Virus record (IMG/VR): IMGVR_UViG_3300020196_000311
Location: 1-20,245 of that record
From: a virus
Strand: one strand, 5' to 3'
DNA: 20,245 nt
Made by a program: the position numbers and the translations under genes. Shown in pieces: positions 4,517 to 17,386 of the stretch (positions are counted from its first letter, which is position 1; every line of letters begins with the position of its first letter). Under the pieces are notes generated by a model. The model saw only the letters and a program-made list of their open reading frames with translations, did not search any database and was not told where the DNA came from.

Positions 4517-5356
4517 TCACTTCTTAGTCCATTCCTTCAGGACATCGGATACGTCCGTCGCCTGTGCCGTCTTCTTCGGCTTCAAAGTTACAACAGGTTC
4601 AGCCACAGGTGCAGCCGGAGCCGCCGGAGCTTCGCCCTCATCCTGCTGATACACCGTGAGTTTCACAGCGTTCTCGGCAGCAGGCTTCTTGGCCTGAGCC
4701 TGCAACGTCTCAAGTATGTCCGGGGCTACACCTGATACAGGCGAGAACAGAACACGAGGTGCCGTAGCCTTAGTGTCAAACTGCATCTTGGTCACAACGC
4801 GACTTGCTGAGATGTTGTGGTTAGCCAGCATCTTGATATAGGAGCGGAACGGCCAGCGACCATTCTCTTCATCACCAAACGCAGATGTAGCAGGCAGAAC
4901 CAACTGCATGATATCGCCACCCGGATCTTGCGGAAGCACCACTGCGGTACGCCACGACAGGCGGCACGCAGCACCCACACCACTCTGACCTGAACCTTTG
5001 ACGGACCACTGACACTTGTCGCAAGTCGAAGCCTGCGGGGCCTTCACTTCAGGATCAGGTACTTTGGAATCCGAGGACCAGCAAACGGGGCTGACCTTTT
5101 CGCCTTCCTTGAAAGCGCCAGTGTAATAGGTACGGCTCGGCGTGTGCGACATCTTCACGAAGATCACGTTCATGTGACGGTCTTCAATCGCACCAATCTC
5201 TTTGCCGCTCACCATCTTGCGGAACACACCGCCCTTAATGGAGATACGCCTATTGCCACCAGTACCGCCACCTGCTATGGCTTTGGTGTCTTCGTCGAGG
5301 CCGTAGTTAACTTCGGCCAACTGATTTTGAATACTCGCAATGATATCTTTGCTCAT
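4517..5356 (-). CDS. Candidate ssDNA-binding / replication accessory protein, 279 aa
   Basis: The start is ATG 5356 with a near-perfect TTAGGAGG Shine-Dalgarno 6 nt upstream, the best in the window, so high expression is expected. The protein has a beta-rich middle, four cysteines spaced C92, C112-x2-C115, C131 that could hold a zinc ion, and a C-terminal low-complexity linker rich in Ala/Pro (about 240-260). A charged tail follows. Phages with this replication set commonly have an ssDNA-binding protein here, and the high predicted expression, size and flexible tail would fit. The classical strongly acidic C-terminal tip is absent (the end is KEWTKK), so this function is inferred from context and not from a recognised domain. 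Confidence 0.6.
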   Translation of the reverse strand: MSKDIIASIQNQLAEVNYGLDEDTKAIAGGGTGGNRRISIKGGVFRKMVSGKEIGAIEDRHMNVIFVKMSHTPSRTYYTGAFKEGEKVSPVCWSSDSKVPDPEVKAPQASTCDKCQWSVKGSGQSGVGAACRLSWRTAVVLPQDPGGDIMQLVLPATSAFGDEENGRWPFRSYIKMLANHNISASRVVTKMQFDTKATAPRVLFSPVSGVAPDILETLQAQAKKPAAENAVKLTVYQQDEGEAPAAPAAPVAEPVVTLKPKKTAQATDVSDVLKEWTKK

Positions 5357-11653: not shown

Positions 11654-12323
11654 GGACAATCTCCTTGGCTACATCCATCCACTCTTTACCGTATTCAACA
11701 TCTACCCAATCTTTGAACCACGGCCCACCTCGGGTGAAATGCACAGCTTGAGGGTTTGAACAGTTATCCTTCGTATACCATCCTTCCAGATAATTGTAGG
11801 TGATGGGTAAATCACCGATGGTCGCGTCCCACAGGAACCGTAACTGATGCAGGTACATCCCAGACTCGCGGTTCACAACTTCGGGAGTAAGTGTCTTGAG
11901 CAACGGATGCCCACAGTTCCACAGGATCATGCTGCTCCAGTTCTTGCGTGGATACTGGTGCTGAACCCTGCCGTCCATCTTCGTTGACTCTTTCGGCTTG
12001 TAGTCATGCTTGACCACACGCACCCCGTAATATGGATCCATGTAGTTCTCAAGCGCAGCGATGTCGCCTCGCCAGAGAAAGTCACAGTCCATGAAGACAG
12101 CCCACCCCTCGTAGTTGCACAGGTGCGGCACAAGGAAGCGCGTGAAAGAAAATTCTGTAGATGACAACGGGTCATGCTCACGCCAATAAAGATTCCGTTC
12201 ACGCATCTCGGTCTGCTTGATCGGCTTGATCTGAAGTGGCACAGACGTATGCTTCTCAAGCGACTTCTTACAAACTTGATACGCGATATCCTCACGGCTA
12301 TCCCAACCAATAAAGATTTTCAT
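11646..12323 (-). CDS. GT-A fold glycosyltransferase, 225 aa
   Basis: A predicted nucleotide-sugar-dependent transferase. It opens with MKIFIGWDSRE, the usual first strand and nucleotide-binding start of GT8-like enzymes. It carries a DxD metal-binding motif in AVFMDCDFLW (D79-C-D81) and ends with an AVHFTRGGPW block, similar to the late His-containing motif of such enzymes. It has no signal peptide or membrane span, so it acts in the cytoplasm. ATG 12323 follows AGAGG by 5 nt and shares one base with the stop of the upstream fusion glycosyltransferase (TGATG), so the two are translated together. The acceptor is unknown: host surface glycan, virion protein and modified DNA all remain open. 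Confidence 0.85.
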   Translation of the reverse strand: MKIFIGWDSREDIAYQVCKKSLEKHTSVPLQIKPIKQTEMRERNLYWREHDPLSSTEFSFTRFLVPHLCNYEGWAVFMDCDFLWRGDIAALENYMDPYYGVRVVKHDYKPKESTKMDGRVQHQYPRKNWSSMILWNCGHPLLKTLTPEVVNRESGMYLHQLRFLWDATIGDLPITYNYLEGWYTKDNCSNPQAVHFTRGGPWFKDWVDVEYGKEWMDVAKEIVHE

Positions 12324-14185
12324 CACACCCTCTCAAATTCCCTCTTACGATTTGTGCCTTTGAAGTGAAGAATCTTCGCTTTATCTGTGTTGTGTTCGGG
12401 TAAACAACCGTAGACTGATTCGGTAAATTCACCACACCCATACTTCTCTGCGTAGATTCGTAATGCTTCTTGGTCGCCGTACCACTGCTTGAACTTTGGA
12501 TCAAGCGAATCGTATATCTTCAATACGTTTGACCAGAATCTCGTATCGTTGGTGGCTACTGCACAGCCCACGTATGGATAGAGTTCACCAATCGTCTTCC
12601 CTGCGTACTCATCAAACTTGATACCGCGCTGCTCAATATTGAACCCTGCGTCATTGTTGAACGCTCTACGACATAACGAAACTTGTGTTCCAGCTAGCAT
12701 GTCTTCGACATTGATCTTGTCCTGCACTAGCATATCGGTATCCAAGAACAACGTTGGCACTTCGATCTCTAACTGAGAGTACATTTTAACTCGCGCATAC
12801 ATTAAATTTTTCTTATCAACAGTTGTTTCAAACCTGTCGGTTATACCCATCACATCTGGCGTAGAACTGTCTGTACACATGATAACGTTTGCATCAGGGT
12901 TGTACCGCAAAATCGATTTCACCATTTTATGTGGATAAGAGATGTCATCGCCCACGTGGAAAAATACAAAGGTCTGCCGGTTGCGATCTCGTTGTCCGAG
13001 TAACGCATCTAATTCTTCTTTGACCTGCATCAACTGCAAATCCCATGGCGCATTCATGTTCTCGCGCTGATAAATCTTTATGCTCGGATACCACAGGCTT
13101 TCGTTACCGATACGGTTGTTCCAATACCAGAGTTTGTTGGCATCCAAAAGCAAAACATCTTTACCTAGCGCCCCTGCCAGATGCACATTCGCGCACGATG
13201 GCGAGATGATGACGCTGCATATCTCCATGAGCGCAGCCACGTTTTCCAAATCCAAGAATGTATCAATGTGTGTGGTAATGAGACTCGGGTGAAACCCTTC
13301 GCCCTGTTTCTGAGCATCGCCATACTGAAGATTAATGAACTTTAGAAACGGTGTGTCCAGAATCTGACGAAACGCTTCAAGCGGCACAGACTTGTGTTGA
13401 CCAATGATGGGCGCGGTACTTGCCCAAGTTAGACCAGCAACGTAGTCATCTTCATGCAACCCATACTCTTTGCGGAGTCTAGCCACACGCTCAGGATCAG
13501 CCTTAAGATAAGCGGTCGAAACGTTAGGAGCGATGTCACGCACAGAATCAACAAAGTATTTAGCGAGAGAGGCAATCGGTATATGTGAGTCGTGATTGCT
13601 CATTTTCACACGTGCGTTATGAGACAGGAAGGTGACGTTCTTCGCCTTGCACCCGCGCTGAAAAAGATTCGCTAAACGCAAATCAATCAGCACCGTGATA
13701 TGTTCAACCTCTCGCGCTAACGCTTCGATGAGAGAGCCATACAGAATCTGATCACCAATGCCTTGCTCACACCAGACAAGCGGTCGTTTTAGTCCTTTGC
13801 CGCGCTCCCATTGTGAGTGCTTGGTATGTAGGCGGGGGGACTTAAAAGTTTTGCTGCCCCAACGCCGCTCGTAGCCTTGCCAACCCTTTTTGAAATCACC
13901 CATTTGCAAGGCAAGAAGTCCAATAGTCCAACCTGCATCGTCGTTGTTGGGTTCCAGTTGTGCTGCGATCTCAAAGTGTTGACGGGCTAACTCCCACCTA
14001 TGCATTTCCCAATGGCATCGCCCAATCTGCAATTCGGTCGCAGTCAGGACAGGCAACGCCACGTGAATGTTTTGGAGGATGCTGATGGCCTCGTCGTAGT
14101 TGCCCTCTTCAGCTTTGGCAAAACCTGTCTTGTAAATGTGTTCAGCAAACTCAGGTAGGGTCTGTTGTTTTTTACCTTCAATCAT
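12323..14185 (-). CDS. TPR + GT-B + GT-A fusion glycosyltransferase, 620 aa
   Basis: Three parts can be read. Residues about 11-90 are tetratricopeptide-type helices (ELARQHFEIAAQLEPNNDDA and similar), followed by the GWQGYERRW motif common in TPR-linked transferases. Residues about 130-390 look like a GT9/GT41-type GT-B domain, with WCEQGIGDQILYG (138-150) and ISPSCANVHLAGALGKDVLLL (the donor-binding C-terminal half, about 327-348). Residues about 403-620 form a separate GT-A domain with a DxD motif LFLDTDMLV (D482, D484) and a late ILHFKG motif. ATG 14185 shares ATGA with the previous stop and has AGAGG 6 nt upstream. Two catalytic-looking transferase folds in one phage polypeptide are unusual. 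One may be inactive or they may act in sequence. Confidence 0.88.
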   Translation of the reverse strand: MIEGKKQQTLPEFAEHIYKTGFAKAEEGNYDEAISILQNIHVALPVLTATELQIGRCHWEMHRWELARQHFEIAAQLEPNNDDAGWTIGLLALQMGDFKKGWQGYERRWGSKTFKSPRLHTKHSQWERGKGLKRPLVWCEQGIGDQILYGSLIEALAREVEHITVLIDLRLANLFQRGCKAKNVTFLSHNARVKMSNHDSHIPIASLAKYFVDSVRDIAPNVSTAYLKADPERVARLRKEYGLHEDDYVAGLTWASTAPIIGQHKSVPLEAFRQILDTPFLKFINLQYGDAQKQGEGFHPSLITTHIDTFLDLENVAALMEICSVIISPSCANVHLAGALGKDVLLLDANKLWYWNNRIGNESLWYPSIKIYQRENMNAPWDLQLMQVKEELDALLGQRDRNRQTFVFFHVGDDISYPHKMVKSILRYNPDANVIMCTDSSTPDVMGITDRFETTVDKKNLMYARVKMYSQLEIEVPTLFLDTDMLVQDKINVEDMLAGTQVSLCRRAFNNDAGFNIEQRGIKFDEYAGKTIGELYPYVGCAVATNDTRFWSNVLKIYDSLDPKFKQWYGDQEALRIYAEKYGCGEFTESVYGCLPEHNTDKAKILHFKGTNRKREFERV

Positions 14186-14424: not shown

Positions 14425-14540
14425 CAATACTCCCTCCCTGACCCTCGTTTCGCTGCCCACTCCGGTGGTGGCACGTGCGCCCATGCTTGATACCGTTCCC
14501 ATTTCCACCGTCGCCACACGTCACGCATCCACCTGATCAT
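14421..14540 (-). CDS. Tryptophan-rich microprotein, 39 aa
   Basis: A short frame fitted exactly between two genes. Its ATG (14540) shares ATGA with the methyltransferase stop, and its TGA (14421-14423) shares GTGA with the GTG of the 80-aa gene. It reads MIRWMRDVWRRWKWERYQAW, then AHVPPPEWAAKRGSG and REYW. It has 7 Trp in 39 residues, is strongly basic at the N-terminus and carries a PPPEWAAKR segment. The double overlap and the protein-like PPPEW block are the evidence. The upstream ribosome site is GCAGGAG, within the methyltransferase gene. A basic/aromatic peptide could bind nucleic acid, membrane or a partner protein. Function unknown. Confidence 0.6.
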   Translation of the reverse strand: MIRWMRDVWRRWKWERYQAWAHVPPPEWAAKRGSGREYW

Positions 14541-15175
14541 GCCATCTCCTGCGGAACAAACTGCAACAAGTTAAGTGGGAACGAGACCGCCGTCTTGCGG
14601 CCTTCGCGTGGATAGACCAGCACTCGCCCTGCGTTCTCCAAAACTAGAGCGTTCGTCACGCCCTTCTCAACGCCCTCAAAATCATCTAGCACAAACACAG
14701 TAGTCTCGGTGACGATCTTGCCAAGCGGCTCAAAGTCTTGTTGCGCGAGCCTTCCATCCAGATAGACAAGATTAGCCTTGACGTTCTTCTCTACCATATC
14801 TGCAAACATCTCGTGTGATGCTCGCATCGGATACTGGAAGATATTCGGCACGTCCAGATTGATGTTGTTGGAGTGGTCACAGGTATAGATGTCTACCAAC
14901 CGTTCCATAGCCAAGTTCATCGTCTTTGTAGACACACCGATAAACGTACCTACCTCGGCAATGACGTTGGGCTGAAAGAACTTGGTGATCTTGTACAACT
15001 CAAACGCATCATCGACAGGCAAAGAGCCGGTGTTGTACTCGGCCTGACTACGCAACTCCTGTTGCTGCTCTACGATCCGCTCGATCTTTTCATACGGAAA
15101 GTCGCCAACCTTCTGGTCGATGATGTCCCAAAAGATCTCGCTGAATCGTTTACGACCGATCTGAACTAAGTTCAT
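14537..15175 (-). CDS. Class I SAM-dependent methyltransferase-like protein, 212 aa
   Basis: The Rossmann methyltransferase pattern is visible: a helical N-terminus, motif I VIAEVGTFIGVST (about residues 71-83; G-x-x-x-G form), an acidic end of strand 2 (IYTCDHS), a VYLDGRL strand 4 region and VFVLDDFEG. This resembles the Methyltransf_24/O-methyltransferase group that often modifies sugars or small molecules. ATG 15175 has AAGAGG 5 nt upstream. It lies directly after the pentamer array and heads a coupled series with the 39-aa gene, the 80-aa gene and the two glycosyltransferases. Methylation of a transferred sugar is therefore plausible. DNA methylation is unlikely, since no (D/N)PP(Y/F) or PC motif is visible. 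Confidence 0.75.
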   Translation of the reverse strand: MNLVQIGRKRFSEIFWDIIDQKVGDFPYEKIERIVEQQQELRSQAEYNTGSLPVDDAFELYKITKFFQPNVIAEVGTFIGVSTKTMNLAMERLVDIYTCDHSNNINLDVPNIFQYPMRASHEMFADMVEKNVKANLVYLDGRLAQQDFEPLGKIVTETTVFVLDDFEGVEKGVTNALVLENAGRVLVYPREGRKTAVSFPLNLLQFVPQEMA

Positions 15176-15194
15176 ACATACCTCTTAAAAGAAA

Positions 15195-15435
15195 CCAGAC
15201 CCTACCCTGCCATGCCGCGCCCAACCACGCGATACCCAACCCGACCTAACCGTGCCTCACCTAACCTCACCCAACCGCGCCCCATAAAATTTCTCGCCAG
15301 AGAAACCAAACCGTACCAGACCTAACCCTGCCTCACACGACCTCACCCCACATCGCCTTACCTAGCCGTGCCACGCCTTACCAAACCCCACCATGCCTCA
15401 CCACACCATGCCCCACCTAACCCAACCATGCCTCA
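15195..15435 (-). repeat. Array of 44 degenerate pentanucleotide units (YNNGG on the transcribed-sense strand)
   Basis: Two blocks of 5-nt units in fixed register fill almost the whole gap between two leftward genes: 18 units (15195-15284) and 26 units (15306-15435). On the + strand the rule is CCNNR. By my count 41 of 44 units start with CC (exceptions at 15230, 15336 and 15351) and all 44 end in A or G. There are 20 different unit sequences; the commonest read leftward are TGAGG (6), CATGG, TTGGG, TTAGG and TGGGG (4 each). The first TGA of the array is the stop codon of the 190-aa gene. The last unit ends about 10 nt before the ribosome site of the methyltransferase gene. The transcript would carry GG every five bases. 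Confidence 0.95.
15285..15305. repeat. Perfect hairpin spacer within the pentamer array
   Basis: A 21-nt spacer separates the two pentamer blocks and shifts their register by one base. It contains TTTCTC (15290-15295), a 4-nt loop GCCA, and GAGAAA (15300-15305). This is a perfect 6-bp hairpin with no CCNNR units inside. As leftward RNA it would be a small stem with a UGGC loop. Confidence 0.85.
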
Positions 15436-16005
15436 CTTTATTTCTTCAAACTTCGTCACTCTAAAAGTCCCAAAGGGACCACGTTTCTCTGGCCTAAAGT
15501 CGCCAATGCCAATGCTCTCACCCGCCTCGTTCAACAGGCGATGTGCGTCCTCAGACGACAGCATCTGGTCATTTAAAATCAAACGGAACTTCGCCGCCCA
15601 CTGGTCGAAGCGCGGACGGTATCGCATCACTCGACCCTTCGTCGCCGGGATAGTCACCGGGCGTCCATCCACCTCAAAGTTAGGTGCAGGTTTCCCGTCA
15701 CCGGCAAGGATCGTCACAGTATCCGACTCCATGCGCACCGCACTCGGCACGACGAACTTCAACGTTTTACGGGAGCCACGCATCTTGTGATTCACACCCG
15801 CATTCGCCATCGTTGCCGGAATCGAAAAGGCATTAAAGTAATACGTTCCATCCTGTGCGATGTAAGCATTCTTCGTCGCCTCGTCCCGAGGATTCGTACT
15901 ATCCACCATCACGCGCCGCGTGGCTTTGCCTTGCTCAACCTGTTCCGCAAACTTGTGAATCAGCAACGGCGTGTTGCCGCGAATTTCTACGTCAATCGTT
16001 TTCAT
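15433..16005 (-). CDS. Phage protein with glycine-rich C-terminal loop, unknown function, 190 aa
   Basis: ATG 16005 follows GAGG by 6 nt. The protein starts with a beta-strand-like MKTIDVEIRGNTPLLIHKF, has a charged segment (about 20-45), AFSIPATMANAGVNHKMRG in the middle, and ends with LLNEAGESIGIGDFRPEKRGPFGTFRVTKFEEI. The IGIGDFRPEK..PFG.F.V pattern at about 163-183 is what I recall from widespread phage and prophage hypothetical proteins. A glycine-rich loop followed by a strand is reminiscent of RAMP/Cas7-like RRM folds. That is speculation from pattern only, with no known activity. The gene ends at the first unit of the pentamer array. Confidence 0.75.
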   Translation of the reverse strand: MKTIDVEIRGNTPLLIHKFAEQVEQGKATRRVMVDSTNPRDEATKNAYIAQDGTYYFNAFSIPATMANAGVNHKMRGSRKTLKFVVPSAVRMESDTVTILAGDGKPAPNFEVDGRPVTIPATKGRVMRYRPRFDQWAAKFRLILNDQMLSSEDAHRLLNEAGESIGIGDFRPEKRGPFGTFRVTKFEEIK

Positions 16006-16028: not shown

Positions 16029-16592
16029 TTACGCACTCTTCCGAGCATCAATCTCGCGCTTCAAATAAAACAACGCTTTCTCCAAGTCCTGCACCGGGTC
16101 CGTACTCTTCTTGCCCGCACGGGTGACGTACTTCACCACGTTGCCCAAGCGATAGTTCAAATCTTTGGCTTCAATAAAGTCGAGCGTCTCAATGCCACCC
16201 GTCCGGTAATGCGGGGGACTGTTCACCATGTCGATACCTTTAACTTTTGAACCCCGCAAAAACTTCGCTGCACTTTCCCCTTCAACCACCAAACCATCCA
16301 AATATTGCAGCGCCTCCCGGTGGGGGTTCGTCAAACGTTCATCACGCGCTCGCACCGAGGCTAACTCCCTCTCGCGCTGCGCCGCTGCGTCGATGGCCTT
16401 CAACGCTTGATCCATTTCCTTCACCGCTTCCACAATCTTCGACGGCTTCTTGGTTTTCTTCCCTGCATTTTTATTTAAGTCCATCCAGCGAATGTGGTAG
16501 ACGTAAGTCGGCTTGACCTTCACGGTCTTGGCTACCTCGCCAACTGCCTTACCCTCTTTCAACAACTTCAAAATCTGATCCTTCTTACTCAT
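16029..16592 (-). CDS. HTH + DUF3310 phage protein, 187 aa
   Basis: The C-terminal ~65 residues match DUF3310: VNSPPHYRTGGIETLDFIEAK, then LGNVVKYVTRAGKK and DLEKALFYLKREID. This domain is common in phages and of uncertain function (often loosely labelled nucleotide kinase-like). The N-terminal ~40 residues form a helix-turn-helix (ILKLLKEGKAVGEVAKTVKV, KPTYVYHIRW), and a charged helical linker joins the two. ATG 16592 overlaps the VRR-NUC stop by 8 bp with AGGAG 10 nt upstream. A TTG two codons earlier has a shorter 4-nt spacing and is an alternative. The fusion suggests DNA- or RNA-directed action of the DUF3310 part. Confidence 0.85.
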   Translation of the reverse strand: MSKKDQILKLLKEGKAVGEVAKTVKVKPTYVYHIRWMDLNKNAGKKTKKPSKIVEAVKEMDQALKAIDAAAQRERELASVRARDERLTNPHREALQYLDGLVVEGESAAKFLRGSKVKGIDMVNSPPHYRTGGIETLDFIEAKDLNYRLGNVVKYVTRAGKKSTDPVQDLEKALFYLKREIDARKSA

Positions 16593-16869
16593 AATCAAAT
16601 AACTCCTTTAAATCATCCACGTTGGTCTCATCAATCACGATTGCCATCCCGCCCGCATCCATGATCCGTTTCAATGCAGCCTCTTGCAGCGCGGTCGGCT
16701 TGTTCCCGTTGGCCTTGCATTCAATCGCCGCAAACCTGCCGCGATAACAAATCAGGAAGTCCGGCGTCCCACTCAATCCATACCCACCGGTTGCGGGCAT
16801 CGCGTAGTAGCAGCCCATCTCGGTCAAGTAACGCTTGACCTGCTTCTTCACCTTGGCCTCGGGAGTCAC
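16585..16869 (-). CDS. VRR-NUC domain nuclease, 94 aa
   Basis: A compact single-domain PD-(D/E)XK-type nuclease. It has GGYGLSGTPDFLICYRG (catalytic Asp37), AAIECKA (Glu50, Lys52) and a following glutamine (Q62), the VRR-NUC order. In this family the stand-alone phage forms cut branched or structured DNA such as Holliday junctions, so a role in resolving replication intermediates is likely. The start is GTG 16869: VTPEAKVKKQVKRYL is the usual opening, AAGGGGG lies 4 nt upstream, and GTGA overlaps the previous stop. The in-frame TTG at 16902 is rejected. Confidence 0.92.
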   Translation of the reverse strand: MTPEAKVKKQVKRYLTEMGCYYAMPATGGYGLSGTPDFLICYRGRFAAIECKANGNKPTALQEAALKRIMDAGGMAIVIDETNVDDLKELFDYE

Positions 16870-17063
16870 TCGACCCCCTTGCCGTCCAGATAAATCTCGC
16901 AACCATTACCCCACACGGCATCGCTACCGCGCTCGGTCTTGAACTCAGCACGCTTGGCGTATTGATGCCACTCCTTGCCGGTCATGCGGAATTCTTTATT
17001 CTTGTTGTAGTCCCACCCAAAGAACTTCGTTCGCGACGGGAGCGTTGTGAGTTTTTGTTGCAT
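16866..17063 (-). CDS. Small phage protein of unknown function, 65 aa
   Basis: ATG 17063 has CGGAG 6 nt upstream, within a leader that starts with a GC-rich stem-loop (17083-17103). The protein is basic and aromatic in its first half (FFGWDYNKNKEFRMTGKEWHQYAKRAEF), and contains a short WGNGCEIYLDGKG end. The stop overlaps the VRR-NUC GTG. No family was recognised. Coupling suggests a partner of the nuclease. Confidence 0.65.
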   Translation of the reverse strand: MQQKLTTLPSRTKFFGWDYNKNKEFRMTGKEWHQYAKRAEFKTERGSDAVWGNGCEIYLDGKGVE

Positions 17064-17357: not shown

Positions 17358-17386
17358 ATCATAACATACCTTTACTTACTTGTCAA
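17358..17386 (-). promoter_or_regulatory. Strong sigma70-type promoter
   Basis: Read leftward: a perfect -35 TTGACA (17381-17386), a 17-nt spacer and -10 TATGAT (17358-17363). It sits in the short gap between two genes and points at the gene starting at 17308. The spacer contains TAAAGGTATGTT, which also occurs in the promoter-like sequence at 19664-19694. Host RNA polymerase should recognise it. Confidence 0.85.

What the first reader, a model, noticed from the sequence alone, without database searches (positions are those of the whole stretch)
15195..15435. A 44-unit period-5 array (YNNGG) fixed at three of five positions
Seen: 44 units in two uninterrupted registers. On the + strand 41/44 begin CC and 44/44 end in a purine, while positions 3-4 vary to give 20 different units. 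Slippage would give copies of one unit; here the rule is kept while the units differ, which implies selection on a 5-nt spacing of GG with an upstream pyrimidine. It starts inside the stop codon of one gene and ends just before the ribosome site of the next. Inference, several options: (a) an RNA target for a ring-shaped RNA-binding protein, by analogy with TRAP, which binds triplets repeated every ~5 nt; (b) a chain of two-quartet G-quadruplexes (GG-N3-GG); (c) an R-loop-prone G-rich non-template strand that primes replication or pauses transcription; (d) a decoy for ribosomes, because many units resemble partial Shine-Dalgarno sites.
Basis: partly seen in the sequence, partly recalled or inferred. 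Interest (0 to 1): 0.88.

Follow-up and report, generated by a model that had tools for sequence, protein, structure and literature searches.

The report
Phage guide-RNA array beside Vipr gene
The odd five-letter repeat is almost certainly a pair of guide RNAs of a recently described virus weapon called VIPR, in which a CRISPR-like protein reads two variable letters of every five to find and silence the DNA of rival viruses.

Summary
It is not chance: the longest perfect run is 16 units, against at most 4 in 300 second-order Markov shuffles. The unit is read on the minus strand, the sense of the surrounding genes.

The array starts in the stop codon of a 190-aa gene. That protein is a RAMP of the Cas7/Csm3 fold (AF2 pLDDT 90; every listed PDB match is a CRISPR Cas7-type protein) and a distant homologue of SUSP1 phage Vipr. 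Of 78 Vipr homologues found without using the array, 73 carry a YNNGG array within 500 nt, against 1 of 80 loci of the downstream gene. Of 120 loci found by the repeat alone, 88 encode a Vipr. This is the VIPR/vrRNA system of PMC13142463.

Related viruses share NN strings while the Y changes freely. One NN string shared by two relatives, and partly by a third, reads under the 1-nt-skip rule as the beta-clamp motif [DE]IRYYLNG. Targets of this window's own guides were not found. New member of a known kind, with unusually long guides (26 and 18 units).

The parts
15433..16005 (-). vipr gene, 190 aa, RAMP (Cas7/Csm3-like) protein; phrog_4652, no Pfam match
   Evidence: AF2 with 55-sequence alignment pLDDT 90; Foldseek and VIA-align list only CRISPR Cas7-type chains at the top, best Z 12.6; hhalign to SUSP1 Vipr prob 99, E 4e-19; invariant RxRP...W...GIGDFRPEKxGxFG, the expected glycine-rich loop
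15306..15435 (-). vrRNA 1 guide tract: 26 YNNGG units; NN = GA AT TG TA GG AT GT GA AT GG TT AA GT AC TA AA GA GG GA CG GA AG TA CT AC TT; first unit overlaps the vipr stop codon
15285..15305 (-). 3' tail of vrRNA 1: UUUCUC-UGGC-GAGAAA hairpin then U tract
   Evidence: same tail after most internal guides in L210, L212, L218 and once in L221; alternative tail UUUUUAGGGGGCAAAGAAUUUUU in L215, L221, L222; folds at -6.4 kcal/mol, z -2.2
15195..15284 (-). vrRNA 2 guide tract: 18 YNNGG units; NN = GG GC TG GA TA GA AC TA CG TG AT GT TG GC AT AG AG CT
15176..15194 (-). end of the array: no hairpin tail, runs into the ribosome site (AAGAGG) of the next gene; the same in the last guide of each near relative
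16029..16598 (-). upstream gene (DUF3310, possible N-terminal HTH), present upstream of vipr in the near relatives; possible but unproven accessory (vap)
   Evidence: HTH is inference from sequence
16585..16902 (-). VRR-NUC-like nuclease gene, conserved upstream in near relatives; context, not shown to be part of the system

Best explanation
This is a phage-encoded VIPR locus: a vipr gene followed at once by two vrRNAs (guide tracts of 26 and 18 YNNGG units). The transcript is thought to be processed or terminated into vrRNAs. Vipr subunits, one per pentamer, would oligomerise on the GGY steps and display each NN pair. The row of NN pairs would base-pair with double-stranded DNA with one base skipped between pairs, usually the codon wobble base, and repress or block genes of competing phages. 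Shown here: anatomy, RAMP fold (predicted), coupling of array and vipr, sharing of NN strings with free Y, and a relative's guide reading as a beta-clamp motif. Inferred from PMC13142463: RNP assembly, the 1-nt-skip rule and repression of rivals.
For: Array structure and null models. Cas7/Csm3 fold of the adjacent protein and homology to SUSP1 Vipr. In SUSP1 my array finder recovers one tract upstream and three downstream of vipr, the layout reported in PMC13142463. Coupling both ways: 73/78 Vipr loci have an array within 500 nt, 72 on the same strand, 4 of the 5 others being contig ends; control 1/80. Blind repeat scan: 88/120 loci encode Vipr, median distance 20.5 nt; controls 1/80, 0/61, 0/120. 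Seventeen runs of 5 or more identical NN between different viruses against 0.19 expected; inside them Y differs in 35/115 units. NN core GA AT CG TA TA CT AA RG of L218/L221 with 1-nt skip: 99 of the 120 listed hit loci hold the beta-clamp motif, and five tested ORFs match PF02767, three above its cutoff.
Against: No target of the window's own two guides was found: IMG/VR scans with exact cores gave chance-like or no hits. Guide lengths of 26 and 18 exceed the 9-16 units reported for the characterised systems. No RNA data. The codon-phase test favours codon positions 1-2 but does not cleanly exclude 2-3. An accessory vap gene is not identified.
Confidence: 0.94

Rival explanations
1. Cis-acting RNA element: the tract lies in the leader of the downstream methyltransferase gene and regulates it by binding an oligomeric RNA-binding protein, as TRAP does.
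For: It ends just before the ribosome site of the next gene; period 5 recalls TRAP targets.
Against: 79 of 80 loci of the downstream gene lack an array. In relatives the array follows vipr although the next gene differs. NN strings are conserved between viruses while Y is not. Only 14 of 44 units have A before G, so the TRAP (G/U)AG triplet is not the rule.
Confidence: 0.03
2. Structural DNA/RNA element: two-quartet G-quadruplex chain or R-loop-prone G-rich strand that pauses transcription or primes replication.
For: GG every 5 nt on the non-template strand.
Against: Does not explain the tight coupling to a Cas7-fold gene, the pyrimidine requirement, or NN strings shared between viruses.
Confidence: 0.01
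3. VIPR relic or repertoire without current targets: vipr and tracts are intact in form but the guides are drifting and no longer match a living rival.
For: No target found for the window's guides; three units have lost a G.
Against: vipr is intact and highly conserved; guides share NN runs with other viruses; exact-match scans of one collection are a weak test.
Confidence: 0.12

Closest known systems
VIPR system of Escherichia phage SUSP1 (type II; PMC13142463, bioRxiv 2026)
   Same: RAMP protein of about 190 aa next to tracts of YNNGG with variable NN; tract followed by a structured 3' tail; phage-encoded; Vipr homology over the full length.
   Different: Here both tracts lie 3' of vipr, the first overlapping its stop codon; 26 and 18 units rather than 9-16; tail is one short hairpin plus U tract, absent after the last tract; no vap1 homologue recognised; Vipr only about a quarter identical.
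Class 1 CRISPR backbone protein Cas7/Csm3
   Same: Fold of the protein and presumed filament on RNA with periodic disruption of pairing.
   Different: No CRISPR repeats or spacers and no cas genes found nearby; period 5 with two read bases instead of period 6 with five (the latter from general knowledge and PMC13142463).
TRAP and its trp leader
   Same: RNA motif repeated about every 5 nt and bound by identical protein subunits.
   Different: No (G/U)AG rule, array not tied to the downstream gene.

Membership tests
VIPR | Vipr protein: RAMP with single RRM core and glycine-rich loop | tested here: met
   AF2 pLDDT 90; listed top matches all CRISPR Cas7-type, Z up to 12.6; conserved G-rich motif; hhalign to SUSP1 Vipr prob 99
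VIPR | vrRNA of tandem YNNGG with invariant GGY and variable NN, adjacent to vipr | tested here: met
   44 units, 41 perfect; same pattern in 73/78 Vipr loci
VIPR | 9-16 repeats per vrRNA (stated for the characterised systems; other array architectures exist) | tested here: inconclusive
   26 and 18 units here; 237 arrays in Vipr loci have median 14, range 7-97; staggered overlapping vrRNAs are mentioned in the paper but supplements could not be read
VIPR | invariant structured 3' tail after the repeat tract | tested here: met
   Hairpin tail after vrRNA 1, repeated in relatives; the last tract lacks it; pseudoknot not examined
VIPR | NN pairs read DNA with a 1-nt skip | tested here: inconclusive
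   No target for the window's guides; a relative's guide core reads as beta-clamp codons; codon-phase test favours positions 1-2
VIPR | vap accessory gene | tested here: inconclusive
   Conserved upstream DUF3310 and VRR-NUC genes in near relatives, not shown to be vap
VIPR | vrRNA expressed and bound by Vipr; programmable repression | not testable with these tools
   needs sRNA sequencing, pull-down and reporter assay
CRISPR array | identical direct repeats separated by unique spacers, cas genes | tested here: not met
   no such repeats in the window by TRF; no cas gene among the proteins scanned against Pfam and PHROGs
TRAP-binding leader | (G/U)AG triplets spaced about 5 nt | tested here: not met
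   A precedes G in only 14 of 44 units

The most novel reading that the evidence does not exclude
This virus clade carries a VIPR variant in which long tracts (18-42 units) are composite guides: several shorter target strings fused in one tract, exchanged as modules between viruses with the NN letters kept and the Y letter drifting, and aimed at conserved codons of rivals' replication proteins such as the beta clamp.
Probability: 0.35. Interest if true: 0.7.

Novelty: new member of a known kind. Interest (0 to 1): 0.55.

Why it matters
VIPR was described in a 2026 preprint as a possible forerunner of CRISPR with a gapped guide code. This window shows an independent environmental clade, and gives evidence not stated in the paper's main text: viruses share NN strings while the Y letter varies, and one shared string reads as the codons of the beta-clamp motif. 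It suggests that guide targets could be decoded as degenerate peptides, which would make virus-against-virus targeting in metagenomes directly testable.

Tried and rejected
Rfam on the window and on the array: nothing at gathering; one chance lncRNA match at E 0.5. Single-sequence AF2 of Vipr failed (pLDDT 33) and was replaced by the alignment-based model. Local target search over 4.7 Mb (both strands) for skips 0, 1, 2 and 4: no clear excess over shuffled guides; skip 3 only finds the arrays themselves. IMG/VR core scans for window guide 1 gave 6 and 61 hits whose flanks do not continue the guide; guide 2 gave 0 and 5. Decoded peptides against Pfam, PHROGs and INPHARED: nothing usable. A 9/10 in-frame match of an L222 guide to a phage gene in L068 (IDTWEEIGFN) equals what shuffled guides reach, so it is only a lead. 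The beta-clamp core was absent from 190 genomes of one bacterial class. Paper supplements could not be read, so the VIPR type (I-VII) is not assigned. I read [DG]Y[DE][TS]Y in several guides as a possible polymerase exonuclease motif, but found no matching target and do not claim it.

Full report
What is there. The window is a 20,245-base virus record. Its main genes, on the minus strand, include a family A DNA polymerase, an SNF2 helicase, a DUF927/primase-type protein, a PD-(D/E)XK nuclease and a VRR-NUC protein. Between a 190-aa gene (15433-16005) and a methyltransferase-like gene (14537-15175) lie 44 pentamers YNNGG (minus strand) in two registers of 26 and 18 units, separated by a 21-nt spacer with a 6-bp hairpin. 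Of the 44 units, 44 have the pyrimidine and 41 the GG; there are 20 unit types and 13 NN types. Shuffled windows never approach this.

The partner protein. The 190-aa protein has no Pfam match and belongs to PHROG 4652, unknown function. Predicted with a 55-sequence alignment it has pLDDT 90, and the listed top matches among solved structures are all CRISPR Cas7-type subunits (Csm3, Cmr, type VII Cas7, Cas7-11), Z up to 12.6 over about 165 residues. Its most conserved part is the motif GIGDFRPEKxGxFG. It is a distant homologue of the protein at 28474-29061 of phage SUSP1 (BLASTP 2e-13, hhalign probability 99). Around that gene my array finder recovers one tract upstream and three downstream, the layout that PMC13142463 reports for SUSP1 vrRNAs. 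So the gene is a vipr.

Coupling of array and gene. Starting from the protein alone, 78 loci were fetched from IMG/VR: 73 have a YNNGG array within 500 nt, 72 on the same strand, and four of the other five are cut by a contig end. The same finder gives 1 of 80 loci fetched with the downstream methyltransferase, that one being the window's own virus. Starting from the repeat alone (CCNNR x8), 88 of 120 loci encode a Vipr by HMM, median distance 20.5 nt, against 1/80, 0/61 and 0/120 in control sets. The array therefore belongs to vipr and not to the gene downstream, which differs between relatives.

Evidence that NN is the information. In six near relatives and the window (24 tracts, 534 units) there are 17 runs of 5 or more identical consecutive NN between different viruses; shuffling unit order gives 0.19. 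Inside these runs the Y differs at 35 of 115 units. Runs are chosen by NN identity, so the NN figure itself is not a test, but the free Y beside a kept NN is. Window guide 1 shares GA AT GG TT AA GT AC TA with L222 (Y differs at 4 of 8) and AA GA GG GA CG GA with L210 and L215; guide 2 shares TA GA AC TA CG TG with L210.

Targets. PMC13142463 shows that NN pairs read DNA with one base skipped, mostly the codon wobble base. Guide cores of other kinds gave 6, 0, 61 and 5 hits without a coherent gene (with 42, 48, 65). Beyond the core the flanks of these guides match the clamp genes only in part (best 10 consecutive NN, L221 guide against L387), so a true victim gene is not identified. Under this rule guide 1 of the window reads [DE][IM][CW]YG[IM]V[DE][IM]G[FL][NK]VTY[NK][DE]G[DE]R[DE][SR]YLT[FL] or its reverse, and no target was found. 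In 44 non-redundant loci the NN pairs fit codon positions 1-2 of the local genes better than 2-3 (by 68 log units) or 3-1 (by 264). Base-shuffled guides reach the first difference in some cases but not the second, and fit positions 1-2 much worse overall. This supports reading in codons but is not decisive.

Anatomy compared with the published system. Most internal guides of the near clade end in a tail TTTCTCTGGCGAGAAATTTTTAT or TTTTTAGGGGGCAAAGAATTTTT, and TTTGG is the commonest last unit (13 of 24 tracts). The last tract of each locus lacks the tail and runs into the next ribosome site. Tracts of 11-42 units in this clade are often longer than the 9-16 reported. They may be overlapping or composite guides, which the paper mentions for other types; this is inference. 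Whether the conserved upstream DUF3310 gene is an accessory is open.

Verdict. I file it as a new member of VIPR, confidence 0.94, and the assignment to one of its seven types as open.

Noticed in passing
L018:8662-8856, L070:10441-10589, L088:11111-11293, L101:7758-7812, L109:10565-10835: YNNGG arrays with variable NN in IMG/VR contigs without a recognisable Vipr in the fetched flanks: orphan vrRNAs, divergent Vipr, or arrays acting in trans.
   Followed up: partly
L221:4573-4757: The first guide decodes from its 5' end as [IM]V[IM]RGG[HQ]GAG[NK]GT[FL], a Walker A (P-loop) motif, which suggests a helicase/primase-type target.
   Followed up: partly
L068:9087 (+): In-frame 9 of 10 NN match of an L222 guide to a phage gene (IDTWEEIGFN...); no better than shuffled guides, but worth testing on more data.
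   Followed up: partly
L215:4573-5089 and L221:4782-4846: Two different 3' tail types (hairpin TTTCTCTGGCGAGAAA and TTTTTAGGGGGCAAAGAA) occur in the same clade and even in one locus (L221).
   Followed up: no
L240:3266-3944: Very long tracts of 38 and 97 YNNGG units upstream of vipr.
   Followed up: no
L043:1116-1165 and L059:6124-6163: Low-diversity runs (two NN types) that match CCNNR by simple slippage: examples of false positives of the repeat scan.
   Followed up: no
window 17358-17386 (-): Good sigma-70-like promoter match (TTGACA-17-TATGAT) upstream of the genes that lead into vipr and the array.
   Followed up: no
window 12323-14185 (-): 620-aa protein with an N-terminal TPR region by Pfam; it looks like a glycosyltransferase (impression from sequence, not tested).
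   Followed up: no
Escherichia phage wV8 (L289:3759-3816 and 5152-5209): Annotated direct repeats DR_4 lie next to YNNGG tracts around a vipr homologue and may be parts of vrRNA units.
   Followed up: no
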